A DNA stretch of 64,000 nt from Thermococcus sp. 21S9 (GTDB lineage Archaea; Methanobacteriota_B; Thermococci; Thermococcales; Thermococcaceae): positions 1,240,001 through 1,304,000 of the forward strand of contig NZ_SNUS01000001.1 of assembly GCF_012027635.1 (NCBI RefSeq). The letters are read 5' to 3'. Each line of letters begins with the position of its first letter. Position 1 is the first letter of the stretch. The notes below the pieces were generated by a model. That model was given only the letters and a program-made list of their open reading frames with translations. It was not told where the DNA came from and did no database searches. The translations under genes were made by a program, and so were the position numbers. This document shows positions 45,676-58,428 of this stretch, piece after piece.

Positions 45676-45689
45676 TGACCAGTCAGTCA
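45676..45689. promoter_or_regulatory. TetR operator A (DUF302 promoter)
   Basis: TGACCAGTCAGTCA, of the form TGAC-N6-GTCA, within the longer inverted repeat CCTGAC-N6-GTCAGG. It covers about -13 to +1 of the inferred DUF302 transcript. The same form occurs at 46156 and 46861. Confidence 0.75.
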
Positions 45690-45699
45690 GGTGGTTCCG

Positions 45700-46083
45700 A
45701 TGGAGGACATGATGGCCCAGATGATTAAGGTTGTGAAGAGCAAGTACCCCTACGAGGAAACCATAGAGAAGATTAAGGCCAAGGTCGAGGAGATTGGATG
45801 GAGCGTTGTTGCCGAGCACGATATGGAGAAGAAAGTCGGTGTTAGGGTTTACATCATCGAGCTCTGCAACAAGGAGTTCGCAAAGAAGGCCCTTGAAAAG
45901 CCTGAGAACCGCTGGATTTCTGCATTTATGCCGTGCCGTCTGGCGGTTGCAGACAACCCCGATGGGGTTTACGTTTACGGTATGAACATGGGTGCCTTTG
46001 CAGGGATGGCTCCCGGTGAGCTTGCCGAGATTCTCAAGAAAGTTTCGGAGGTTGACGAGGCCATTCTCAGTTCGGTTCTTTGA
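45700..46083 (+). CDS. DUF302 family protein
   Basis: A protein of about 127 residues of the DUF302 fold, with the amphipathic repeat structure and YPYEETIEKIKAKVEEIGW at the start and ending in VDEAILSSVL. No activity is assigned to the family with certainty; such proteins often sit beside sulfur, redox or heavy-metal genes. ATG 45700 follows GGTGGTTCCG. It is under the first TGAC-N6-GTCA operator, so it is expressed with the oxidoreductase-hydrogenase operon. Next gene: tetR. Confidence 0.75.
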   Translation: MEDMMAQMIKVVKSKYPYEETIEKIKAKVEEIGWSVVAEHDMEKKVGVRVYIIELCNKEFAKKALEKPENRWISAFMPCRLAVADNPDGVYVYGMNMGAFAGMAPGELAEILKKVSEVDEAILSSVL

Positions 46084-46155
46084 ACGCCTCTTTTCCATCC
46101 TTTCCGGCGGAAAGTTTAAATTCTCCTCCTGCACATAATTGTCCATAACGTTAAA

Positions 46156-46169
46156 TGACCGAATGGTCA
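46156..46169. promoter_or_regulatory. TetR operator B (tetR promoter)
   Basis: TGACCGAATGGTCA, a perfect inverted repeat TGACC-N4-GGTCA, in the tetR leader at about +11 to +24. TATA GTTTAAATT lies at 46114-46122. This suggests the regulator represses its own gene. Confidence 0.75.
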
Positions 46170-46181
46170 GAAGTGGTGGGC

Positions 46182-46775
46182 ATGGCTACGAAGTCCCCGG
46201 GTAAAACCCGTGAGAAACTCGTGTCGTCTGCAATGGAACTCTTTGCAAAAAAGGGTTTCGATAAGACCACGGTAGACGAGATAGTGGCTAAAGCGGGAGT
46301 TGCCAAGGGCACCTTCTACCTCTACTTCAAGAGCAAAGACGACCTCATAAAGGAGCTCGCCTTTGAGGTAATGCCCATAATGGCCATGCCCTCGCTAAAC
46401 GACCCGTACATAACGGTTTCCTTCCCCACCTTAGAGAGCTACCTCCTTCAGCTTGGGAAGGAGTTCCTTGAGTTCTACTCTGAGAGCTATCGGGCTCAGA
46501 TTTTCTTCCACATGCTCTCCGTTCGCGAGAGGATGAAGAGCATCGATGACATTTACCACCAGGCCTGCTCCGAGCTCCTGAGGGAAGGGGCGAGGAGGAT
46601 TACGGCGTACGTCAAGGTTGGCTTTGAGGACGCGCTTATAGCGTTCCAGATTTTTATAGCATCACTTATGCACTACCTCCACGCCAAGGACTGCATAGGG
46701 CTTCCGGGTGAGCACTACCTCCGGCGGGTCGTGAAGGTTGTGCTGAACCACCTCCGTCTCTCCGCAAGTGTATGA
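46182..46775 (+). CDS. TetR family transcriptional regulator
   Basis: A 197-residue regulator. The N-terminal helix-turn-helix is clear (TREKLVSSAMELFAKKGFD, then TTVDEIVAKAGVAKGTFYLYF), and the C-terminal helical part would bind an unidentified ligand. ATG 46182 is preceded by GGTGGGC; a longer frame begins at 46155 inside the operator and is rejected. Three TGAC-N6-GTCA sites upstream of DUF302, of this gene and of the oxidoreductase operon are its probable targets. Confidence 0.88.
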   Translation: MATKSPGKTREKLVSSAMELFAKKGFDKTTVDEIVAKAGVAKGTFYLYFKSKDDLIKELAFEVMPIMAMPSLNDPYITVSFPTLESYLLQLGKEFLEFYSESYRAQIFFHMLSVRERMKSIDDIYHQACSELLREGARRITAYVKVGFEDALIAFQIFIASLMHYLHAKDCIGLPGEHYLRRVVKVVLNHLRLSASV

Positions 46776-46802: not shown

Positions 46803-46860
46803 AAATCTTTTGTTTCCACTCTCTCAGAAAACTATTTAAGGTTTTGACAATGAGCCTAAA

Positions 46861-46874
46861 TGACTGGTCAGTCA
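46861..46874. promoter_or_regulatory. TetR operator C (oxidoreductase-hydrogenase operon)
   Basis: TGACTGGTCAGTCA, the third TGAC-N6-GTCA. It follows the TATA box TATTTAAGG (46833-46841) and covers about -3 to +11 of the transcript, so bound regulator should block the operon. Confidence 0.78.
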
Positions 46875-46890
46875 TTAAAAGGTGATAGCC

Positions 46891-48948
46891 ATGGCCGAGA
46901 AACTCGTGCCCGTAGTGTGCCCCTGGTGTTCAGTCGGCTGTCGCTTTTACGCGGTCAGCGTGAACGGCTACATCAGGAAGATTGAATTCGACTACGACCA
47001 CCCCACCGTCAACCGCGGAAAGCTCTGCCCGAAGGGTGTTGCCTCCTACCAGTTCATTAACAGCCCCAGAAGACTCAAGAAGCCCCTCAAGCGCGTTGGT
47101 GAGAAGGGAGAAGGAAAGTTCGAGGAGATAAGCTGGAGCGAAGCCTACAGGATAATCGCCGAGAAGATTAAGGAAATCAAGGAAACCTACGGTCCCGAGG
47201 CAATAGCCTTCCTCGGAAGCGAGAAGATAACCTTCGAGGAGAACTACCTCATCCACAAGCTGTCCAAGGCGATAGGAACCAACCATCTTGACTTCCCTGG
47301 AAGGTACTGCCAGTACTCCAACAGTCCCGCGAGAACGGCCGTCTTCGGTAGCTCGGCCGCGACCAACCCCTTCGAGGACGTTGCCAAGGCCGAGTTCATT
47401 CTGATTTGGGGCCACAATCCAGCGGAGACGGCGCCTATCTTCTTCGGCCAGTACATTGAGAAGGCCGTTCTCGACAACGGCGCCGAGATGGTCGTTATAG
47501 ACCCGCGCGCGACGAGGGGCCACAAGTACGCGAGCATGCACCTCAAGCCCTACCCGGGAACCGACCTCGCGATAGCTCTGGCCATGCTCAACGTCGTTAT
47601 AAGCGAGGAGCTCTACGACAAGGAGTTCGTCAACGAGAGGACGACCGGCTTCGAGGAGCTCAAGGAAGCCGTTAAGGACTACACCCCCGAGTGGGCCGAG
47701 AAGATAAGTGGCGTTCCCGCCGAGGACATAAGGAAGGTCGCGAGGCTCTTCGCCACCAAGAGGACGGCACTCCTCGTCAACGAGGGCCTCAACCAGCACG
47801 TCAACGGTTTCGAGTTCGCCCTTGCCCTCGCGAACCTCATCGCGATTACCGGCAACATCGGCAAGGAAGGCGTCTGGAGCGGTGTCTTCCCAGGAGCGCA
47901 GTGCGGTCTCTGTGCTGCGATGAGCGCGATAATGCCCAACAAGCTCCCGACCGGAAAGCTCGTCACCGACGAGGCCGCGAGGGCCGAGCTTGAGAGGCTC
48001 TGGGGCTTCAAGATACCGGACTGGGTTGGCCTTGACCTGACAACTATGATACGCGAGATGGGCAACAAGATTAGGATGATGTACATAGTCGGTGGCAACA
48101 TCGCCAAGTCGGCCCCGAACAGCAAGTGGGTTAGGGAACAGCTCAAGAAGCTTGACTTCCTGGTCGTGCAGGACATATTCCTCACCGAGACGGCTAAATA
48201 TGCCGATATAGTTCTCCCGGCCGCGGCCTGGTTCGAAAAGACCGGAACGGCAATAAGCGCCGAGAGAAGGGTCCAGAGGAGCTACAAGGCCGCGAACCCG
48301 CCCGGAGAAGCCAAGCCCGACTGGCTCATCATCGTTGAGCTGGCAAAGGAGCTCGGCCTTGGCGAATACTTCAAGTACGAGCACCCGGACGAGATTCTCA
48401 GGGAGATAAACAGCGTCATTCCGCTCTTCAAGGGTGCAACGCCTGAGTATCTCGCGGAGCACCCGGAGGGATGCTTCTTCCCGTGTACCGAGCCCGGCGA
48501 GGGAACGAAGGTTCTCTTCAAGAAGGGCTTCAAGACGGCCGATGGAAAGGCCCATCTCCAGCTCGTTGGCTGGCGCGAGCCACCGGAGAAGCCCGACGAG
48601 GAGTACCCGCTCTGGCTCACCAACTTCAGGCTCGTTGGCCACTGGCACACGGGAACCATGTCCTTCGAGAGCCCGAGCCTCCAGAAGCGCTGGCCCGAGG
48701 AGTACGTCATGATTAACCCGAAGGACGCCGAGAAGTACGGTATAAAGGACGGCGACCTCGTCAAGGTCGAGACCAGGCGCGGAAGCGTTCTCGTCAGGGC
48801 AGAGGTTACCGACCACGTCAGGGAAGGCGTTATCGCGATGCCGAACCACTGGAACATCAACGTCCTGACCCTCGAGACCATCCACGAGAAGACCAAGATG
48901 GCCGAGCTCAAGGCCGTCGCGGCCAGGGTTAGTAAGGTGGAGGAGTGA
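46891..48948 (+). CDS. fdhF: Formate dehydrogenase-like molybdopterin oxidoreductase, catalytic subunit
   Basis: A 685-residue bis-pyranopterin Mo/W enzyme. N-terminal Cys10, Cys13, Cys17 and Cys46 bind a 4Fe-4S cluster; Cys140 in GRYCQYS is the expected metal ligand, so selenocysteine is not used. Formate dehydrogenases have His141 and Arg333 next to the metal; here these positions read Gln141 and Phe333 (SGVFPGAQC). The overall architecture and the downstream partners are those of formate hydrogenlyase systems of Thermococcus, but the substrate may differ. ATG 46891 follows GGTGAT; it is first in a nine-gene operon. Confidence 0.82.
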   Translation: MAEKLVPVVCPWCSVGCRFYAVSVNGYIRKIEFDYDHPTVNRGKLCPKGVASYQFINSPRRLKKPLKRVGEKGEGKFEEISWSEAYRIIAEKIKEIKETYGPEAIAFLGSEKITFEENYLIHKLSKAIGTNHLDFPGRYCQYSNSPARTAVFGSSAATNPFEDVAKAEFILIWGHNPAETAPIFFGQYIEKAVLDNGAEMVVIDPRATRGHKYASMHLKPYPGTDLAIALAMLNVVISEELYDKEFVNERTTGFEELKEAVKDYTPEWAEKISGVPAEDIRKVARLFATKRTALLVNEGLNQHVNGFEFALALANLIAITGNIGKEGVWSGVFPGAQCGLCAAMSAIMPNKLPTGKLVTDEAARAELERLWGFKIPDWVGLDLTTMIREMGNKIRMMYIVGGNIAKSAPNSKWVREQLKKLDFLVVQDIFLTETAKYADIVLPAAAWFEKTGTAISAERRVQRSYKAANPPGEAKPDWLIIVELAKELGLGEYFKYEHPDEILREINSVIPLFKGATPEYLAEHPEGCFFPCTEPGEGTKVLFKKGFKTADGKAHLQLVGWREPPEKPDEEYPLWLTNFRLVGHWHTGTMSFESPSLQKRWPEEYVMINPKDAEKYGIKDGDLVKVETRRGSVLVRAEVTDHVREGVIAMPNHWNINVLTLETIHEKTKMAELKAVAARVSKVEE

Positions 48949-48958
48949 GGTGGTTGGA

Positions 48959-49456
48959 ATGAGCAAGAAGATTTTCCTCGACTATAAGCGCTGTATCGGC
49001 TGTAAGGCCTGTGAAGTGGCCTGTGAAATGACGCACGGCGAGGCAAGGATTAAGGTCTTTGAGTTCCCCGACCTCTTCACCGTCCCCTTCAACTGCCGTC
49101 ACTGTGAGAAGGCACCGTGTATGAACGTCTGTCCGACCGGGGCGCTCTTCAGGGACGAGGACGGCGCGGTGGCCTTCGACCCGCTCAAGTGTATTGGCTG
49201 TCTCATGTGTGCCGTCGCCTGTCCCTTCGGAGTTCCGAAGCTCGACGAGGAGAACAAGATTATGGACAAGTGCGACCTCTGTTCCGACAGAAGGGCGGAA
49301 GGAAAGCTTCCAGCGTGTGTCTCTGCCTGTCCAACTGAGGCCCTGCTCTACGGCGATATAAACGAGGTGCTCTGGAACAGGGAAGGAAAGATAGTGGCCA
49401 ACCTGAAGAGCTCCGCCGAGAAGGGGGAGGGCGAGAAGGCCTACATCGTCCTCTGA
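48959..49456 (+). CDS. Four-cluster ferredoxin-type electron transfer subunit (HycB/FdhB-like)
   Basis: A 165-residue protein with four Cys clusters in the HycB/HydN pattern: CIGCKACEVAC, CRHCEKAPCMNVCP, CIGCLMCAVACP and a final CDLCSD...CVSACP. It would carry electrons from the molybdopterin subunit to the hydrogenase. ATG 48959, chosen over the upstream GTG 48950, follows GAGGTGGTTGG. It starts 10 bases after the catalytic subunit ends. Confidence 0.9.
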   Translation: MSKKIFLDYKRCIGCKACEVACEMTHGEARIKVFEFPDLFTVPFNCRHCEKAPCMNVCPTGALFRDEDGAVAFDPLKCIGCLMCAVACPFGVPKLDEENKIMDKCDLCSDRRAEGKLPACVSACPTEALLYGDINEVLWNREGKIVANLKSSAEKGEGEKAYIVL

Positions 49457-49508
49457 CCTTATTTTTTTGCGAGGGAAACCAAGGGTTAAAAACCAAGAGG
49501 TGATGGTG

Positions 49509-50888
49509 ATGATTGAACTGGTGCTAATCTCAGCGCTCATCCCCTTCGTGCTCCTGATACTCTGGAAGCTCGACGGAAGAACAGCCGACCTGATAGCGGG
49601 CTCGGTTCTCGGCGTTTCCCTGCTCCTCAACGGGGTTGCCGTTTACGATTTCTTCTCAAAGGGCTCTGACAAGGTTTACCACACCGCCTACGTTACCACC
49701 GGCAACCTCGGCGAGGTCTTTGGAATAACCGCCGATACCGCCTCAATGCTTATGGGTCTCGTCTCGATACTAATCGCGTTTCTTATGGCAGTCTATGCGA
49801 GCAAGTTCCTTGACTCCGGGAAAGGGAAGTTCTACGCGCTCTTCGGCCTGCTCACCGGTGCGAGCATGGTCTTCATATACTCGACCAACCTCGTCCAGTT
49901 CGCCGTTGCGCTTGAGCTCATGGCGATAGCGATGCTCTGCCTCGTGGAGCTCGGTAATGCCAAGACTGATGCCCTCAAGGCCTTTCTCGTCCTCAACGTC
50001 GGCGTGCTCCTCATTCTCGGTGCGGTTGCCGTTCTTGGCACCGGGCAGGACCTTACCAAGGCCACTTATGACGGCACGGCGTTCCTCCTGCTAATCTTCG
50101 CGGCCTTCATGATGAGCTCACAGTTCCCGTTCTACTCTTGGCTTCCGGACTCAACGGCTTCCCCGCTCCCCGCGAGTGCTTATGTGCACTCCGCTTCGAT
50201 AGCGCCTCTCGGTGCCTACATGCTCTTCAGGGTTATCCAGTACATGAAGCCGAACGACGACTACTTCTGGCTCCTTGGAGGTCTGACCGTTGCCCTCATA
50301 ATCCTGATGATGATTTACTATCCGCTCCAGCGCGATGCAAAGAGGCTCATAGCCTACTCCACCATAGCCCAGACCGGCGTTGCCTACATAACCCTCGCCT
50401 ACGCCCTGCTCGGCCACGTCGCGGGAATCCAGATAGCCCTCTACCAGGTCGTCAACCACGCGGTCGTTAAGGCCCTCGCCTTCGCCTCCGTCGGAGGACT
50501 CGCCTTAGCTTATGGAACCACCGACCTCAAGCTCATCAAGGGCATGAGGAGAACCGTCCCCTGGACGAGCATAGCCTGGTTCATGAGCTTCCTTGGACTG
50601 GCAGGTGTCCTTCCGCTCGGCCTGTTCTTCAGCAAGGCCTTCACGATAATGAGCACCAGGCACGCCAAGGGCGTCGCTTCGTGGCTCTTCCCGGCGGTGG
50701 TTCTCATAGACGCGGCGATATTCCTCATCGTGGTTCTCCTCTGGTTCAGGGAGATATTCTTCGGCGAAGGCGAGGCAAAGAAAGAGCCGAAGGTCATCGT
50801 TGCAGTGCTCATCATCCTCATAATCGTCGGAATAATAATGCCATGGGTCAGCCTCGACGTTGTGATGAAGATAGGCTTTGCGGGGTGA
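49509..50888 (+). CDS. Membrane hydrogenase subunit, NuoN/MrpD-like ion pump (HyfF/HyfD type)
   Basis: A 459-residue antiporter-like protein with about 13 membrane segments. The pump helices contain a Glu in FAVALELMAIA, Lys/His positions (LPDSTASPLPASAYVHSASI, HAVVKALAF) and Lys in FFSKAF, as in NuoL/M/N and Mrp subunits. It should move H+ or Na+ when the hydrogenase evolves H2. ATG 49509 follows GAGGTGATGGTG. It begins the hydrogenase membrane module. Confidence 0.85.
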   Translation: MIELVLISALIPFVLLILWKLDGRTADLIAGSVLGVSLLLNGVAVYDFFSKGSDKVYHTAYVTTGNLGEVFGITADTASMLMGLVSILIAFLMAVYASKFLDSGKGKFYALFGLLTGASMVFIYSTNLVQFAVALELMAIAMLCLVELGNAKTDALKAFLVLNVGVLLILGAVAVLGTGQDLTKATYDGTAFLLLIFAAFMMSSQFPFYSWLPDSTASPLPASAYVHSASIAPLGAYMLFRVIQYMKPNDDYFWLLGGLTVALIILMMIYYPLQRDAKRLIAYSTIAQTGVAYITLAYALLGHVAGIQIALYQVVNHAVVKALAFASVGGLALAYGTTDLKLIKGMRRTVPWTSIAWFMSFLGLAGVLPLGLFFSKAFTIMSTRHAKGVASWLFPAVVLIDAAIFLIVVLLWFREIFFGEGEAKKEPKVIVAVLIILIIVGIIMPWVSLDVVMKIGFAG

Positions 50889-50894
50889 TGTGAG

Positions 50895-52886
50895 ATGATA
50901 CTCGAATACGCAATTGGAGCGTTCATCCTCGGTGGTCTCGTCGGCCTGATTAGGGACTACAAGGCCACGGTTAAGGCGTCAAGCTTCATGGCGTTCCTCG
51001 GTTCACTCGCCCTCCTCTGGCAGGTTTACGCCGTCTACACCAACGGTCCGGTTTCGGGGAACCTCTTTGGAATCCCCGTCAAGGTGGATGACCTCTCCAT
51101 AATCTTCCTCCTCATAATCGGTCTCGTCGGAGCCGCGGCTTCCCTCTTCGCGATAAACTACATGGAACTCTTCGAGAAGGTCGGCAAGGGCTGGGTCTAC
51201 GCGATAGCCTACAACACCTTCCTTGCGAGCATGGCCCTCGTCGTTACCGCGGACAGCATGGAGTATTTCGTCATGGGCTGGGAGCTCATGACCCTCAGCT
51301 CGTTCATACTGGTGTTCTTCAGCGAGAGGCCGAGGGATACCGACGCGAGCGTCAAGTACTACATCACCATGCACTTCCTCGACACGATTCCGCTCTTCCT
51401 TGCCCTGGGAACCGCCTACTCCCTTGTCGGTGGTTTCGACAAGCTTACCTTTGAGAACATAGCGAGCGCTATGGCAACAGCCTCCACGAGCACCAAGCTG
51501 GTCTTCACGGCGCTCCTCATGATAGCCTTCATGACCAAGTCGGGAATGATACCCTTCCAGTTCTGGGTTGCCGAGACCTACCGCGCGGCGCCGACCAGCG
51601 TTTCGGCCGTCATGGCCGGTGCGATGGAGAAGGTTGCTCTCTACGGTCTCATCGCCCTCATCTGGAGAACCGTCGGAACGAGCTACGGCCTCGGCCTCTT
51701 CGTTGCCGTGATAGGTGCAATAACCCTCACCGTTGGAACCCTCTACGCACTCAGAGAGACCAACGCCAAGAGGCTTTTGGCTTATCACTCGATAGGCCAG
51801 ATGGGCTACATATGGCTCGGCCTCGGAATAGGAATGGCCCTCATTCCAAAGGGTGGCTTCCTTGGAGCGGTAGGAGCGCTTGGAGCCTTCGCGGGACTCT
51901 TCCACGCCCTTAACCACGCGATATTCAAAGCCTCGCTCTTCCTCTCCGCCGGAGCCGTTGAGTACAGAACCGGAACCGTTGACCTCAATGAGCTCGGCGG
52001 TCTCGGCAAGACCATGAAGGTAACCGCCTTGGCGGCGCTCTTCGCCTCGCTCGCCATCAGCGGTGTCCCACCCTTCAACGGCTTCATCAGCAAGTGGCTC
52101 ATCTACGTTTCCGGTTATTACTCGAACAGCTACGTTTTGGCCCTCGGTGCAGTCCTCGCGGCCTTCATCAGCGCCGCTACGCTCGCATCGTTCATCAAGT
52201 TCTACGGAACCCAGTTCGGCGGTGAGATGAAGCGCTACGAGAACGTCCAAGAGGTCCCGGCCGGAATGCTTGCCGGCCAGTGGATTCTGGCAGGTTTAAC
52301 GCTCCTTATCGGCGTCTTCCCGGGAACAGTCACCGGAATCCTCAACGTCTTCAACGCCCCGATAAGCGATGGCGTTTACAAGATAGGCTTCCAGTCCGTG
52401 GTGTTCTCGCCCGTGCTCTTCGTGATAGTCCTCGGAATACTGACCTTCGGGCTCTACCTCGTCTTCAAGCCCGAGTACAAGGAGGCCAAGCCCTGGGACT
52501 GCGGTTCAACCGAGATAGACGAGGACGAGTACAGGATAAACGCGGAGGGCTACTACATCAAGTACGAGGAGAAGATAGGCTCGTTCTACCACCTCGGTGA
52601 CTGGTTCTACCGCGTTGGAGCCGGGATAATCCGCTACATCGTCAGGGCCTACCTCTGGATGGCGAGCTACTTCACCAAGATAGTCGACACCCCGTACACC
52701 AGGATAGAGACCCTCGACGACCTCCGCGAGAGGGAAATCATGCACATAGACGAGGAGGTCTTCAAGCCACTCATCAGGTTCCTCAACATAGCCAGGGACG
52801 TCATCCCGGGAATAAGGCTCGGCACCTTCATCGTCATAGCCCTCGTTGTCGTTGGGGCTATCGTGGGACTGCTAATAGTCATGTGA
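50895..52886 (+). CDS. Membrane hydrogenase subunit, NuoL-like ion pump (HyfB type)
   Basis: A 663-residue antiporter-like subunit. The N-terminal 500 residues are polytopic with MGWELMTLSSF (Glu), TKSGMIPFQFWV (Lys), FHALNHAIFKASLF and FNGFISKWLIY; the C-terminal about 140 residues form a long hydrophilic stretch and a last membrane helix, which matches the HyfB/NuoL class with its lateral extension. It starts 6 bases after the previous gene with GGTGATGTGAG upstream. Confidence 0.85.
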   Translation: MILEYAIGAFILGGLVGLIRDYKATVKASSFMAFLGSLALLWQVYAVYTNGPVSGNLFGIPVKVDDLSIIFLLIIGLVGAAASLFAINYMELFEKVGKGWVYAIAYNTFLASMALVVTADSMEYFVMGWELMTLSSFILVFFSERPRDTDASVKYYITMHFLDTIPLFLALGTAYSLVGGFDKLTFENIASAMATASTSTKLVFTALLMIAFMTKSGMIPFQFWVAETYRAAPTSVSAVMAGAMEKVALYGLIALIWRTVGTSYGLGLFVAVIGAITLTVGTLYALRETNAKRLLAYHSIGQMGYIWLGLGIGMALIPKGGFLGAVGALGAFAGLFHALNHAIFKASLFLSAGAVEYRTGTVDLNELGGLGKTMKVTALAALFASLAISGVPPFNGFISKWLIYVSGYYSNSYVLALGAVLAAFISAATLASFIKFYGTQFGGEMKRYENVQEVPAGMLAGQWILAGLTLLIGVFPGTVTGILNVFNAPISDGVYKIGFQSVVFSPVLFVIVLGILTFGLYLVFKPEYKEAKPWDCGSTEIDEDEYRINAEGYYIKYEEKIGSFYHLGDWFYRVGAGIIRYIVRAYLWMASYFTKIVDTPYTRIETLDDLREREIMHIDEEVFKPLIRFLNIARDVIPGIRLGTFIVIALVVVGAIVGLLIVM

Positions 52887-52896
52887 GGTGATGAAA

Positions 52897-53814
52897 ATGG
52901 AGACGACGGCCAAGCTCGCCTTCAGCTTTATCGGTGTGCTCCTGACCTTCCTCCTGCCCCCTTACCTCGACGGAATAGCGAGAAGGGTTAAGGCCAGACT
53001 TCAGTACAGGCGCGGGCCACCGCTCATGCAGACCTGGTACGACCTCAACAAGCTCTTCAGCCTTCCGTCGGTTAAGCCGACCAAGAGCGCGCTCTTCACC
53101 TGGGCACCGTTTTTAGCACTCGCCTCAGCCGTAATCGGCGCTCTCCTCCTCCCCTACGGAAACGTGGTGCCGATTGACATAGGCTTCAACCTGGTGGTGT
53201 TCTTCTACGTGATACTGATGGTCAGCGTCTTCCTCATGCTCGCTGGTCTAAGCGTCCAGAACGCCTTCAGCCACCTCGGTTCGGCCAGGGAGATGCAGAT
53301 AATCCTCACCGTCGAGCCCCTCATAGCCGTCCTCTACGGAGTCCTCGCTTACAACGCGGGCTCGCTCAACATAGCCGACATCATCTCGAACCTTCACCTA
53401 ACGCCCTCGCTCGTCATGACCTACGTCCTGCTCGCCTACGCGCTCTACGTCGAGAGTGGATTCGTGCCCTTCGACATAGCCGAGGCCGAGCAGGAAGTCA
53501 TAGGCGGTCCGCTCAGCGAGTACAGCGGAAGGCTCCTCGGAGTCTTCTACTACGCCATCTACATCAAGCGCTTCGCCCTGCTGTGGTTCTTCGTCAGCCT
53601 GCTCGTCCTCCCGTGGGTCGGGCCGATAGACACTGCCCTGAAGGCGGCAGAGGTGCTTGCGGTTCAGTTCCTCCTGACGGTGGCTTTATATCCGGTCATA
53701 GCATCACTTGAAGCAACGAACGCGAGGCTTCGCATAGACCACGTTGTTAAGATGAACACGAGGGCGTTCTTCGCCGGAATAATTATCCTTGCCATAGCGT
53801 TCATGGGGTGGTGA
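52897..53814 (+). CDS. Membrane hydrogenase subunit, NuoH-like (HyfC/HycD type)
   Basis: A 305-residue polytopic protein with eight or nine segments. The NuoH family landmarks are visible: ARLQYRRGPPLMQTWYDLNKL, and VPFDIAEAEQEVIGGPLSEYSG. It links the soluble hydrogenase arm to the ion pumps. ATG 52897 follows GAGGTGATGAAA. Its stop is separated by 2 bases from the large-subunit ATG. Confidence 0.88.
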   Translation: METTAKLAFSFIGVLLTFLLPPYLDGIARRVKARLQYRRGPPLMQTWYDLNKLFSLPSVKPTKSALFTWAPFLALASAVIGALLLPYGNVVPIDIGFNLVVFFYVILMVSVFLMLAGLSVQNAFSHLGSAREMQIILTVEPLIAVLYGVLAYNAGSLNIADIISNLHLTPSLVMTYVLLAYALYVESGFVPFDIAEAEQEVIGGPLSEYSGRLLGVFYYAIYIKRFALLWFFVSLLVLPWVGPIDTALKAAEVLAVQFLLTVALYPVIASLEATNARLRIDHVVKMNTRAFFAGIIILAIAFMGW

Positions 53815-53816
53815 AT

Positions 53817-55616
53817 ATGGTAACGACGAGGGATTTGGAGGCTCACTTTGAGTTTGAGTGCAGGGCCTGTGAAAAGGGCCAGTGCAGAAAGGCGGACGTT
53901 AACACAATCCTTGCCGAGAGAAAGGGCCTCAAGGAGTTTTACGAGGCCTTCAAGGAGCACATTAAAGAGTGCAAGAGGATGAGCTACGGCCAGTACCAGT
54001 TCGTGATTGACAGGGAGGTCCTTCCGGAGGCGGTCCTCTGGTGGCACAACCACCCGGAGTTCAAGGAGACCCACCTCTCAACCGCCGTTGGAACCGACGA
54101 GAGGCCCCTCAACGGTCACTTCGTCTACATGCCCTTCCTCAACGTCCAGGTCGAGCCCTTCAACATGGACGAGAACTACTACGTCTTCCTCAGGGCGTAC
54201 CTCCCGGCCGACGACCCGAGCTTCCCGAGCGTGGCCGAGAAGCTCCCAGCCGCGCTCTGGATAGAGAGGGAGGTTAAGGACCTGCTCGGCTTCAACCCCG
54301 TTGGCCACCCGGACCCGAGGAGGCTCATCCTTCCTGAGGACTGGCCGGAGGGAGTTTACCCGCTCAGAAAGGACATGGACTACAGGCACTCACCGATGGC
54401 CGAGACCAAGACCGAGTTCAGGGAGAAGCCGGAAGGAACGACGCTCGTCCCGATGGGTCCGGTTCACATGGGTATCGAGGAGCCGGCCCACTTCAGGCTC
54501 TTCGTTAAGGGAGAGACGATAGTCGACGTTGACTACCGCGGTTTCTACTCCCACCGCGGTATTGAGAAGACCGGTGAGGGCAGGCTTACCTACAACCAGG
54601 TCCTCTTCCTCGCCGAGAGAATCTGTGGAATCTGTGGCTACCAGCACTCCGTCAGCTACGCGATGGCGATTGAGCGCTTGGCCGACGTGGAAATCCCGGA
54701 CAGGGCGCGCTACATAAGGACTCTGATGCTCGAGCTGGAGAGGATTCACAACCACCTGCTCTGGGTCGGCATTGCCGCTCACCTCGTCGGCTACGACACC
54801 GGCTTCATGCACGCGTGGAGAATCCGCGAGCCGGTAATGTGGCTGGTGGAGAGGCTCACTGGAAACAGGAAGCAGTACGGAATGAACATCGTCGGTGGCG
54901 TCAGGAGGGACATCCTCGACTACCGCAAGGAAGAGATACTCAAGGTCGTCAAGCAGATACGCGAGGAAACCAAGAAGTTCCTTGACATCGCCCTGAACAC
55001 CAACACCTTCATCAAGCGCGCCGAGGGGGTCGGAATCCTGCCCTACAAGGTGGCTAAAGCTTACTCCGTCCTCGGACCGACCGCTCGCGCGAGCGGAAGG
55101 AGGATTGACACGAGGAAGGACCAGGCGACCAAAACGGCGATGGCCTACAACGAGCTCGACTTCAAGGTTCCGGTCTACAAGGAGGGCGACGTTCTGGCCA
55201 GGGTCCTCGTCAGGATGGACGAGCTCTTCGAGAGCCTCTGGATGGTCGAGCAGATAATCGACCAGATGCCCGGCGGGGACATAATGGTTCCAATCGGCGA
55301 CCTGCCCGAGTACGAGGAGGCGTTGGGCTTTACGGAGGCCCACCGCGGTGAAGTGGTTCACTACGTCATGACCGGCGAGAAGAACAAGGTTTACCGCTGG
55401 AAAGTCCGTGCTCCTACGTACAACAACCTGCCCGCCGTTCCGGAGATGCTCAAGGGCTACCACGTTGCCGATGCACCGCTCATCATAGCGAGCATTGACC
55501 CGTGCTACTCCTGTACCGAGAGGGTTCAGTTCGTCGACGTCCAGACCGGCAAGGTGAAGGTTCTCACCGAGGCCGAGTTCAACGAGCTCTCAATCAAGTA
55601 CAGGGGGGTGTTCTGA
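53817..55616 (+). CDS. [NiFe] hydrogenase large subunit, NuoC-NuoD fusion (HycE/HyfG type)
   Basis: A 599-residue protein. The N-terminal third is NuoC-like; the remainder is the group 4 large subunit. All Ni-Fe cysteine ligands are present: Cys270 and Cys273 in ICGICGYQH, and Cys563 and Cys566 in DPCYSC. So it should be a true hydrogenase, not a catalytically dead relative. The 33-residue tail after Cys566 is expected to be removed by the protease encoded at 59894. An unusual CRACEKGQC motif (Cys15, 18, 23) occurs at the N-terminus. The start has GGGGTGGTGAAT. Confidence 0.92.
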   Translation: MVTTRDLEAHFEFECRACEKGQCRKADVNTILAERKGLKEFYEAFKEHIKECKRMSYGQYQFVIDREVLPEAVLWWHNHPEFKETHLSTAVGTDERPLNGHFVYMPFLNVQVEPFNMDENYYVFLRAYLPADDPSFPSVAEKLPAALWIEREVKDLLGFNPVGHPDPRRLILPEDWPEGVYPLRKDMDYRHSPMAETKTEFREKPEGTTLVPMGPVHMGIEEPAHFRLFVKGETIVDVDYRGFYSHRGIEKTGEGRLTYNQVLFLAERICGICGYQHSVSYAMAIERLADVEIPDRARYIRTLMLELERIHNHLLWVGIAAHLVGYDTGFMHAWRIREPVMWLVERLTGNRKQYGMNIVGGVRRDILDYRKEEILKVVKQIREETKKFLDIALNTNTFIKRAEGVGILPYKVAKAYSVLGPTARASGRRIDTRKDQATKTAMAYNELDFKVPVYKEGDVLARVLVRMDELFESLWMVEQIIDQMPGGDIMVPIGDLPEYEEALGFTEAHRGEVVHYVMTGEKNKVYRWKVRAPTYNNLPAVPEMLKGYHVADAPLIIASIDPCYSCTERVQFVDVQTGKVKVLTEAEFNELSIKYRGVF

Positions 55617-56221
55617 TGGCCGAGAGCCTCTCCTACACCGAGAAGCTCAAGAGGTGGGACCGCTTCGAGGTCGAGAAGTTCAGCAAGAAGGCCCCGGTCA
55701 CCACTCCCTATCCTTTTATTGACATCGAGAAGCCACCCGAGTACCGCGGAATTCCACACATCAACCCCGAGAAGTGCATAGGCTGTGGCGCCTGCGTCAA
55801 CGCCTGCCCGCCCGATGCGCTAATCCTCGAGTGGGACAAGGAGCACGGCGTTAAGAGGCTCACCTTCAACGCGGCGCGCTGTATAAGGTGCCACCGCTGT
55901 GTGGAGGTCTGCCCGACCGGCGCGATGGAACCAACAACCCGCTTTGAGATAGCGACCGACAACAAGGAAGACCTCGTCGAGGTCGTCGAGCACAAGCTCG
56001 CTTACTGCGAGGAGTGTGGCGAGTACCTCGACTTCACCGAGAGACAGATTGAGTACGTGAGGAACATCCTGCCGAAGGAAATCTTTGAGATGTATGCCCT
56101 TGAAGACAGAATCGGCCTGACCCAGGAGGCAAAGATGCGCAAGACCGTCGAGAAGCTCAGGGAGACCGAGGGAATTCCAGTCTCGGCCTTCATGCTCGTG
56201 AAGAAGGGGGGTGAGGAGTGA
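55616..56221 (+). CDS. Hydrogenase ferredoxin-type subunit, NuoI-like (HycF/HyfH type)
   Basis: A 201-residue protein with two classic 4Fe-4S motifs (CIGCGACVNACPPDA and CIRCHRCVEVCPTGA), which connect the electron-input side with the small subunit. A further CEECG near residue 125 is an extra metal-site candidate. ATG 55616 shares its first base with the stop of the large subunit and is preceded by GGGGGGTG; the longer frame to 55502 is inside the previous gene. Confidence 0.9.
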   Translation: MAESLSYTEKLKRWDRFEVEKFSKKAPVTTPYPFIDIEKPPEYRGIPHINPEKCIGCGACVNACPPDALILEWDKEHGVKRLTFNAARCIRCHRCVEVCPTGAMEPTTRFEIATDNKEDLVEVVEHKLAYCEECGEYLDFTERQIEYVRNILPKEIFEMYALEDRIGLTQEAKMRKTVEKLRETEGIPVSAFMLVKKGGEE

Positions 56222-57051
56222 TGGGAAGAAGACTCAAGTCCGTCTGGGTCTATCACGTTGATGCCGGTTCATGTAACGGCTGTGACATTGAAGTCCTCGA
56301 TGTCCTCAGCCCGTACTACGACCTCGAGAGGCTCGGTATCAAGGTCGTTCCCAACCCGAGGCACGCCGATGCCCTCTTCATCACCGGCCCGCTCACGAGG
56401 CAGACGAGGATAATGCTCAAGAAGGCCTACGAGGCCATGCCACCGAAGCCGAGGATAGTGGTCGCGATAGGAACCTGCGCCTCAAGCGGTGGAATCTTCT
56501 ACAACAGCTACGCCCTCTACAACACCTCCCCCCAGCGCGGAAGGGACAGGCTCAGGAGCGGTGGACCTGAGATGATAGTGCCGATAGACATGTACATCCC
56601 CGGCTGTCCGCCGAGCCCGGAGGAGATACTCTACGGCGTCGCCCAGCTCCTCGGCATCAAGGAGAAGAAGATGAAGGGCGAATACTGGGTCGCGCTCCCG
56701 CCGAAGGAGACGCCCAAGGCCGAGAACGAGGTCGAGTTCAGAATCCCCGACAGGCCGATACCGCTCCGCTACTGGCTCACCCTCCGTGAGGAGCTCAGGC
56801 GCGTCGTTGGCTACTACGACAGGGAGGCCGTCCTTGAGGACTTCATGGCCCTCGTCGAGAAGGCCTTTGAGAGCGACAACCCGAGGGAGAAGCTCCACGA
56901 CCTCGTCACCGGCTACTTCCTCAAGGAGAAGGACTCCAGGATAAAGGTCGCCATGCGCTTCCTCGAAAACGAGTTCTGGAAGCTGTACGACGAGTACCAC
57001 TCCCTCGGCGAGGCCCTCAAGAAGAAGTATCCCGTGACGGCGGGTGTCTGA
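56221..57051 (+). CDS. [NiFe] hydrogenase small subunit, NuoB-like (HycG/HyfI type)
   Basis: A 276-residue protein with the proximal cluster ligands in DAGSCNGCDIEVLD, GTCASSGGIF and PGCPPSPEEIL. After about residue 155 comes an extension of some 120 residues without Cys, predicted helical, which is longer than ordinary NuoB-type subunits. ATG 56221 overlaps the previous stop and follows GGGGTGAGG. Confidence 0.9.
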   Translation: MGRRLKSVWVYHVDAGSCNGCDIEVLDVLSPYYDLERLGIKVVPNPRHADALFITGPLTRQTRIMLKKAYEAMPPKPRIVVAIGTCASSGGIFYNSYALYNTSPQRGRDRLRSGGPEMIVPIDMYIPGCPPSPEEILYGVAQLLGIKEKKMKGEYWVALPPKETPKAENEVEFRIPDRPIPLRYWLTLREELRRVVGYYDREAVLEDFMALVEKAFESDNPREKLHDLVTGYFLKEKDSRIKVAMRFLENEFWKLYDEYHSLGEALKKKYPVTAGV

Positions 57052-57052
57052 G

Positions 57053-57370
57053 GTGCCCTGGAAGCTCTACCGCTTCAAATACGAGGACTACCCCGAGTAT
57101 TCGGCGAGGATTACCGGCCACTACGCCGGCGACCTGCTAATCATCGAGGAGGAGGGCGAGCTGAGCGAGGAGGCAGTGAGGCTCATAAAGTCCGCTCTCG
57201 GAATAGACGAGAACGTGAGGGCCTTCGACATCGAGGTCAGGGATGTGCTGAGGCTCCCGATTAAGGAGTTGCCGGAGAAGGACAGGAAGGTCCTGCTGGA
57301 GGCTTCCGAGAAGCTCGACTCCGAGAGCAAGCTTCACATAGAGTACCGCTACCAGCCGAGCTTCGATTAA
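57053..57370 (+). CDS. Small unknown protein of the hydrogenase operon
   Basis: About 105 residues, acidic, mixed alpha/beta, without Cys clusters or membrane segments. Start is probably GTG 57053 with GGCGGGTG before it (GTG 57044 is an alternative). It is not recognised. The position, 2 bases after the small subunit, suggests an assembly or peripheral subunit of the complex. Confidence 0.65.
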   Translation: MPWKLYRFKYEDYPEYSARITGHYAGDLLIIEEEGELSEEAVRLIKSALGIDENVRAFDIEVRDVLRLPIKELPEKDRKVLLEASEKLDSESKLHIEYRYQPSFD

Positions 57371-57409: not shown

Positions 57410-57856
57410 ATGAACGAGGAGACGCTGAAGAAGGCCAAGGAGGAGTTGATTCAAAGGGTAAAAGACTTCTACGGTGACAACCTTCTCTCGATAATCTTCT
57501 ACGGGAGGCATCTCCGCGACCCGAGCTTTCCGGAGATAGACGTCGTTGTAATTATCGACAAGCCCTACGACCCGGTGAAGATGAACCGCATGGCCGACTT
57601 CGTGGAGAAGGTTCGCGACCCGATAGAGGAGAAGTACGGCTACCACGTCTCCTTCGAGCTCTACACGCGCGAGGAAGCGGAGAACTTCCACTCCGGCTAC
57701 CTTGACGTTGTGGTTAACTACGAGGTCGCCTACGATAAGGATAACTACTTCCAGAACCTCATGAACGACATGCTGAACCCCAAGAAGGCGATGGACTACG
57801 TGAAGTACATCAGCACCATTGAGTACATCCAGCTGGACGAGGAGAGGGAGGAATGA
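57410..57856 (+). CDS. Degenerate nucleotidyltransferase-fold protein
   Basis: A 148-residue protein with the nucleotidyltransferase strand order ([22 protein letters not shown]), but the family motif GSX10DXD is changed: GR replaces GS and only one Asp of the DXD remains, so activity is doubtful. Strong ribosome binding site GGAGGTGGTGAG before ATG. It is translationally coupled to mobA (4-base overlap) and lies 39 bases after the hydrogenase genes, probably on the same transcript. Confidence 0.6.
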
Positions 57857-58428
57857 TTGGGGCAGTTCTGGCCGGCGGAAGGGGCAGGCGCTTCGGGGGC
57901 GACAAGCTACTCTACAGAATCAACGGCAGGCCTTTGATTCTTTACACCATCGAGAGGCTTGAAACCGCCAAGAGAATCGACGAGATAATCTTGGTTGCCT
58001 CAAAGGACAACGCAGAGAAGCTCAAAGCACTCGGCTACCGCGTGGTCGTTGATGAGCTCCTGATAGGCCCGATGGGGGGCGTTTACACTGCCTTGAGCCT
58101 TGGCGATGCCTTCGTCGTTGCCGGCGACATGCCCCTCCTCGTTCCGGAGTTCATTGATTACATAATCAAAGAATTCGAGAAAAGCGGGAAAATCGCCTGC
58201 GTGCCGAGGTGGGAGAACGGCTACCTTGAGCCCCTCCACTCCGCTTATTCCAAAGCCTTCCGCGAAATCCTTGAGGAGAAGATAAAAACCGGAAACTACG
58301 CCCTCAACAGGGCAATCCGTGAAGCTAATCCCTGCTACCTTCCGATAGAGTCCCTCCCAGAGGAGTGGCGCGAGAGCTTCTTCAACGTGAACACGAGGGA
58401 GGATTTGGGGAGGATTGACGGAATTTGA
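57853..58428 (+). CDS. mobA: Molybdenum cofactor guanylyltransferase MobA
   Basis: A 191-residue enzyme attaching GMP to molybdopterin to make the bis-MGD cofactor. Signature [13 protein letters not shown] at residues 6-18 and GDMPLL (metal site) are present, and PMGGVYTAL is typical. Its place at the end of the operon fits supply of the cofactor for the molybdopterin subunit at 46891. It overlaps the degenerate nucleotidyltransferase by 4 bases. Confidence 0.88.

What the first reader, a model, noticed from the sequence alone, without database searches (positions are those of the whole stretch)
46891..48948. Formate-dehydrogenase-like subunit lacks the His and Arg used for formate
The metal ligand is Cys140, but the next residue is Gln, not the His141 of E. 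coli FdhF, and the position of Arg333 (number 333 here too) is Phe. Both residues are conserved in characterised formate dehydrogenases. No formate transporter gene lies in the operon. The complex might oxidise another substrate coupled to H2 evolution.
Basis: partly seen in the sequence, partly recalled or inferred. Interest (0 to 1): 0.75.

Follow-up and report, generated by a model that had tools for sequence, protein, structure and literature searches.

The report
Formate-dehydrogenase look-alike feeding a hydrogenase
Many heat-loving Thermococcus and Pyrococcus species carry a hydrogen-making membrane complex, annotated as formate hydrogenlyase, whose formate-oxidising subunit has lost both amino acids known to handle formate, so it probably works on some other, still unknown compound.

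Summary
The subunit keeps metal-ligand Cys140, but FdhF His141 is Gln141. Arg333 aligns with Pro334, not Phe333. No other basic residue obviously replaces them.

It is not one odd gene. All 37 near-full-length relatives in Thermococcaceae share Gln and Pro; all 50 comparison FDHs have His and Arg, including T. onnurineus Fdh2 (formate growth) and Fdh3 (purified FDH). The Gln/Pro proteins form one clade nested among His/Arg FDHs. It matches the published "Group 4 fhl" operons (T. onnurineus fdh1, P. abyssi, T. gammatolerans Mhy1).

No formate transporter lies near these operons. They have a TetR gene and a palindromic operator found only in genomes with this operon (39 of 94). Published expression falls on formate, or is seen only in peptone-plus-sulfur cells. 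The window's genome has a separate His/Arg FDH with a transporter.

Purifying selection is strong and hydrogenase motifs are intact, so it is not a relic.

Best reading: an FdhA-derived Mo/W enzyme retuned to a non-formate, probably uncharged substrate, coupled to an energy-converting hydrogenase. The substrate is unknown; aldehydes are my leading guess (about 25%). Residual formate activity is not excluded. New variant of a known kind.

The parts
45676..45689 (+). second copy of the operator 14-mer (TGACCAGTCAGTCA), just before the DUF302-tetR genes
45691..46083 (+). DUF302 protein, function unknown (ATG at 45700 is the likelier start); only in the window clade
46155..46775 (+). TetR-family regulator, presumed repressor of the operon
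   Evidence: Pfam PF00440; conserved upstream of most clade operons
46832..46840 (+). TATA-like box CTATTTAAG
   Evidence: read from sequence; inferred
46859..46876 (.). palindromic operator AATGACTGGTCAGTCATT, presumed TetR site
46891..48948 (+). FdhA-like catalytic subunit with Cys140-Gln141 and Pro334
47308..47313 (+). codons of Cys140 (metal ligand) and Gln141 (His in FDHs)
47890..47892 (+). codon of Pro334, in the column of FdhF Arg333
48962..49456 (+). FdhB, polyferredoxin-like electron carrier with 16 Cys
49467..50888 (+). MhyC, HyfD/NuoL-like membrane subunit (start uncertain)
50895..52886 (+). MhyD, HyfB-like membrane subunit
52891..53814 (+). MhyE, NuoH-like membrane subunit
53820..55616 (+). 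MhyF, [NiFe] hydrogenase large subunit with fused NuoC-like domain; RICGIC and DPCYSC motifs present
55613..56221 (+). MhyG, HycF/NuoI-like 4Fe-4S subunit
56218..57051 (+). MhyH, hydrogenase small subunit (NuoB-like)
57044..57370 (+). MhyI-like small subunit, no family match
   Evidence: MhyI named in PMC2718504
57410..57856 (+). orf148, conserved partner gene of the clade, looks like a small nucleotidyltransferase by eye
   Evidence: no Pfam, PDB or NCBIfam match
57853..58428 (+). mobA, molybdenum cofactor guanylyltransferase
   Evidence: NCBIfam NF001457 over cut-off

Best explanation
A working Mo/W-bis-MGD oxidoreductase that arose from an archaeal formate dehydrogenase and was retuned to a substrate other than formate, most likely an uncharged one (aldehyde-type donors are my leading guess, about 25%). 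Steps: (a) the metal site is kept: Cys140, the 4Fe-4S cysteines and Lys48 (shown by sequence). (b) The pocket lost the formate-binding Arg and the neighbouring His, now Pro and Gln (shown). (c) Electrons pass through FdhB to the MhyF/G/H [NiFe] hydrogenase, which makes H2 and moves ions through MhyC/D/E (inferred from homology to formate hydrogenlyase). (d) A dedicated TetR repressor sits on a palindrome between TATA box and start codon and lets go when its ligand, presumably the substrate or a relative of it, appears (the site and its exclusivity are shown; binding and ligand are inferred). The reverse direction, H2-driven reduction, is possible.
For: Gln141/Pro334/Ala336 37/37 against His/Arg/Gln 50/50; one clade at 100/100, nested among His/Arg FDHs; formate-linked Fdh2 and Fdh3 keep His and Arg; no other basic residue gained in the clade that FdhF lacks; 24 of 25 formate transporter genes lie within 10 kb of a His/Arg fdhA, none near this clade; the own genome has a separate His/Arg FDH with a transporter; exclusive operator and TetR instead of SurR control; expression falls on formate in T. 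paralvinellae and Fdh1 subunits were seen only in sulfur/peptone cells of T. onnurineus; dN/dS 0.068.
Against: No activity data. RcFDH variants H387M and R587K are still active though weakened, so loss of the residues need not abolish formate use. The protein passes the NCBIfam formate dehydrogenase cut-off, narrowly. The hydrogenase half is a formate-hydrogenlyase type. The aldehyde guess rests on weak hints only, and sulfur and peptone are confounded in the expression data. No DMSO-reductase-family enzyme with a Cys ligand is known to me to oxidise aldehydes.
Confidence: 0.62

Rival explanations
1. It is still a formate dehydrogenase/CO2 reductase with an altered active site that handles internal formate (from peptide catabolism, or as a sink for H2), so it needs no transporter.
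For: Annotation model TIGR01591 passes; best sequence and fold matches are FDHs; partner subunits match formate hydrogenlyase; weakened RcFDH variants keep activity; authors of PMC4463584 propose formate removal.
Against: Both catalytic residues and Gln335 replaced in all 37 members; expression lower on formate; strains without a transporter do not convert formate, although that also fits lack of uptake; a His/Arg FDH is already present in the own genome.
Confidence: 0.2
2. It runs in reverse as an H2-driven reductase, most likely of a sulfur compound, and is used when sulfur is present.
For: T. onnurineus Fdh1A and Fdh1B detected only in sulfur-grown cells; polysulfide and thiosulfate reductases belong to the same superfamily.
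Against: The sulfur medium also held peptone; polysulfide/thiosulfate reductases are much more distant than FDHs (223 against 474 bits); the partner hydrogenase is of the H2-evolving type; hydrogenase maturation proteins fall on sulfur.
Confidence: 0.11
3. The subunit is catalytically dead and only passes electrons or serves as scaffold, as the NuoG relative does in complex I.
For: Catalytic residues lost; another archaeal FdhA-like protein (L128) lacks even the Cys.
Against: Cys140, cluster cysteines and Lys48 invariant; the new pocket residues are themselves invariant between proteins only about 60% identical; dN/dS 0.068, as low as the hydrogenase large subunit; mobA follows the operon.
Confidence: 0.07

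Closest known systems
T. onnurineus Fdh1-Mfh1-Mnh1 (TON_0281 cluster) / T. gammatolerans Mhy1 / P. abyssi fdh-hydrogenase operon = Group 4 fhl of Holden and Sistu (PMC10025317)
   Same: Same clade, same Gln/Pro residues, same operon core, TetR and operator
   Different: Window clade lacks the Mrp antiporter module after MhyI and has an added DUF302 gene. Members are annotated as formate hydrogenlyase without activity data that I found
T. onnurineus Fdh2-Mfh2-Mnh2 formate hydrogenlyase (TON_1563-1580; Group 1A)
   Same: FdhA-FdhB plus Mhy-type energy-converting [NiFe] hydrogenase; FdhA 44-46% identical
   Different: Has His and Arg, a formate transporter and a SurR site; no such operator
T. litoralis Fdh-Mhy (PMC2432063; Group 3 by its place next to a hydrogenase operon)
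   Same: No formate transporter; also lacks the Arg (Ala)
   Different: Keeps His; separate long-branch clade, 35% identical; no TetR or operator
E. coli FdhF (formate dehydrogenase H of FHL-1)
   Same: Fold, 4Fe-4S site, Lys44, metal-ligand position
   Different: Sec in place of Cys; His141-Gln, Arg333-Pro, Gln335-Ala

Membership tests
Metal-dependent formate dehydrogenase (FdhA/FdhF) | Domain architecture Fe4S4, Molybdopterin, dinucleotide-binding | tested here: met
Metal-dependent formate dehydrogenase (FdhA/FdhF) | Cys/Sec metal ligand | tested here: met
   Cys140 invariant
Metal-dependent formate dehydrogenase (FdhA/FdhF) | His next to the ligand (His141 in FdhF) | tested here: not met
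   Gln in 37/37; His in 50/50 FDHs
Metal-dependent formate dehydrogenase (FdhA/FdhF) | Formate-binding Arg (Arg333 in FdhF) | tested here: not met
   Pro in 37/37; Arg in 50/50 FDHs
Metal-dependent formate dehydrogenase (FdhA/FdhF) | Formate oxidation or CO2 reduction | not testable with these tools
   needs assay
Formate hydrogenlyase complex (FHL/Mhy) | FdhA-FdhB genes joined to an energy-converting [NiFe] hydrogenase operon | tested here: met
Formate hydrogenlyase complex (FHL/Mhy) | Intact [NiFe] ligand motifs in the large subunit | tested here: met
   RICGIC, DPCYSC
Formate hydrogenlyase complex (FHL/Mhy) | Formate-dependent H2 evolution | not testable with these tools
   needs assay
Group 4 fhl of Holden and Sistu | No formate transporter; TetR gene just upstream in the same direction | tested here: met
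   definition
Group 4 fhl of Holden and Sistu | No SurR site in the promoter | not tested
   stated for the group; not searched here

The most novel reading that the evidence does not exclude
The Group 4 'formate hydrogenlyases' of Thermococcaceae are a misnamed energy-conserving complex in which an FdhA-derived Mo/W enzyme couples a non-formate donor (possibly aldehydes from peptide catabolism) directly to H2 evolution and ion pumping, under its own TetR sensor; the transporter-less T. litoralis type would be a second, separate departure from formate.
Probability: 0.4. Interest if true: 0.82.

Novelty: new variant of a known kind. Interest (0 to 1): 0.64.

Why it matters
Formate-driven H2 production in Thermococcus is a model for life near the thermodynamic limit, and these operons are counted as formate hydrogenlyases in genome surveys and physiology papers. 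If the subunit does not use formate, a common archaeal energy-conserving complex has an unknown substrate. A simple two-residue check (His and Arg) would separate likely formate enzymes from look-alikes, and the dedicated operator gives a direct route to the inducer, hence to the substrate.

Tried and rejected
Reverse-strand ORF over the gene (46930-48966): no support. Chance or sequencing error: excluded by the homologues. Learning the substrate from a wider TetR regulon: the operator occurs only at this operon and the DUF302-tetR promoter. TetR ligand by homology: matches are almost all confined to the DNA-binding domain. orf148 in Pfam, PDB and NCBIfam: nothing. AMP-acetyl-CoA synthetase as a pathway clue: present in 23 of 39 clade genomes against 3 of 55 others but linked mainly in the close clade, only suggestive. 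AlphaFold model: mean pLDDT 72.5, poor at the pocket (136-141, 324-346), so no geometry was read from it. Cys-Gln FdhA outside Thermococcaceae: none among the top hits checked from 396 archaeal genomes; bacteria were not surveyed. One family search failed on wrong coordinates and one paper look-up on a bad term; both were redone in another form.

Full report
1. Observation. ORF 46891-48948 (+) encodes a 685-aa FdhA-like protein. It has the Fe4S4, Molybdopterin and dinucleotide-binding domains, scores 671.5 bits on NCBIfam TIGR01591 against a cut-off of 666.25, and its best PDB sequence match is M. hungatei FdhA 7bkb_D; the best fold matches are also FDHs. I aligned it with E. coli FdhF read from NC_000913. 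Sec140 falls on Cys140, His141 on Gln141, Lys44 on Lys48. Gln335 falls on Ala336.

2. Not one odd gene. A search of 94 Thermococcaceae genomes gave orthologues at 80-96% identity and a second set at about 60-63%. All 37 near-full-length members aligned have Gln and Pro. The 50 comparison FDHs (39 Thermococcaceae, 10 other archaeal, E. coli) all have His and Arg. Over the whole protein, only three basic positions invariant in FDHs are lost in the clade (141, 181, 334). The one newly invariant basic residue (Arg463) is also Arg in E. coli FdhF, so nothing obvious replaces them. A maximum-likelihood tree puts the Gln/Pro proteins in one clade at 100/100, nested among His/Arg proteins when rooted on FdhF (LG+G4, no mixture model). 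In 396 genomes sampled across the archaeal domain, profile scores drop from 1069 bits or more for intact or nearly intact clade members to 839 or less for everything else, apart from split fragments of clade genes. The top hits outside that I fetched are His/Arg, except one that lacks even the Cys.

3. Identity of strains. I identify G026, G019, G004, G087 and G077 as T. onnurineus NA1, T. gammatolerans EJ3, P. abyssi GE5, T. paralvinellae ES1 and T. litoralis from exact contig lengths known to me. Gene order supports this: G026 has three fdhA genes at places that fit TON_0281, TON_0539 and TON_1563, and the T. litoralis FdhA has a computed mass of 71.606 kDa against the published 71.6. On this reading Fdh2 (needed for growth on formate) and Fdh3 (purified and active, PMC8965080) have His and Arg, and Fdh1 is in the Gln/Pro clade.

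4. Genomic setting. The operon holds FdhA, FdhB and MhyC-I, followed by orf148 and mobA. The [NiFe] ligand motifs RICGIC and DPCYSC are present. In the T. onnurineus, P. abyssi and T. paralvinellae types a set of further genes that I take for an Mrp antiporter module follows MhyI; the window clade lacks it. Formate transporters (PF01226) occur in 22 of 94 genomes. 24 of the 25 genes lie within 10 kb of a His/Arg fdhA and none near this clade (positions, compared by hand). 25 of the 40 clade genomes have no transporter at all. The own genome has a His/Arg fdhA at G000:C1:618908-620944, next to a formate transporter and a pyridine-nucleotide oxidoreductase-type subunit, so formate is already served there.

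5. Regulation. Between tetR and fdhA lies a palindrome, AATGACTGGTCAGTCATT (46859-46876), between a TATA-like box and the start codon. It is unique in the genome at up to 3 mismatches. Its core is within one mismatch in 36 of 37 clade promoters, at -30 to -36, and in none of 42 other fdhA promoters, where the best match has 4 or more mismatches. The exact 14-mer TGACYRGTCAGTCA occurs in 39 of 94 genomes, all of which carry a clade fdhA (G051 confirmed on a contig fragment), and in no other genome. In G061, the one clade genome without it, the contig starts inside fdhA. A second copy stands before DUF302-tetR at 45676-45689. The only clade promoter without the site, L051, also lacks an adjacent tetR. 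That TetR binds it is inferred. These counts, and the co-occurrence of orf148 (35 of 39 clade genomes against 1 of 55), are not corrected for shared ancestry.

6. Function retained. dN/dS against the T. gammatolerans orthologue is 0.068 for FdhA and 0.066 for the hydrogenase large subunit.

7. Literature. Holden and Sistu (PMC10025317) describe Group 4 fhl: no transporter, TetR about 350 nt upstream, no SurR site. Expression of this group falls on formate in T. paralvinellae, and strains without a transporter do not convert formate. In T. onnurineus, Fdh1A and Fdh1B were detected only in sulfur-grown cells, and a subunit of their hydrogenase was raised (PMC4463584), but that medium also held peptone. 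The FDH His and Arg are called present in all metal-containing FDHs, yet RcFDH H387M and R587K keep lowered activity (PMC9804402). Exchanges at these two positions, with an extra Arg, gave nitrate reductase activity (PMC10385643). I found no paper in the library that reports the missing residues; subscription journals are poorly covered.

8. A second case. The T. litoralis-type FdhA, the basis of the T. litoralis formate hydrogenlyase report, keeps His but has Ala for Arg in 5 of 5 genomes. Its formate-driven H2 activity was described as not fully reproducible (PMC2432063). So both transporter-less operon types lack the Arg.

9. Judgement. That it lacks the formate residues is shown. That it is a functional, separately regulated enzyme clade is well supported. 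That formate is not its substrate is likely (about 0.6) but unproven. The substrate itself is a guess: loss of the anion-binding Arg and the Pro/Ala replacements favour an uncharged donor, and published expression is compatible with growth on peptides, which makes aldehydes the leading candidate at about 25%. Sulfur-linked reverse action is the next.

Noticed in passing
window 57410-57856: orf148, with no family match but a small-nucleotidyltransferase look, is present in 35 of 39 genomes with the Cys-Gln operon and 1 of 55 without; the exception (G090, L137) is a copy with an internal stop beside hypD where the operon is gone.
   Followed up: partly
L111 3984-5897 (also L113-L116): The T. litoralis-type FdhA, basis of the T. 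litoralis formate hydrogenlyase report, keeps His but has Ala in place of the formate Arg in 5 of 5 genomes.
   Followed up: partly
[quoted passage not shown] its relatives are found in 23 of 39 clade genomes and 3 of 55 others, mostly linked in the close clade.
   Followed up: partly
window 45676-46083: A DUF302 gene carries its own copy of the operator and shares a transcription unit with tetR in the window clade, so it probably belongs to this system.
   Followed up: partly
L128 (G306:C1:1231963-1233969): FdhA-like protein of another archaeal family that lacks the Cys, the His and the Arg at the three active-site positions.
   Followed up: no
L051 3967-6539 (reverse-complemented coordinates): A second Cys-Gln FdhA-FdhB pair in G089 without tetR or operator, facing MhyC/MhyD-like and further small genes on the other strand.
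   Followed up: no
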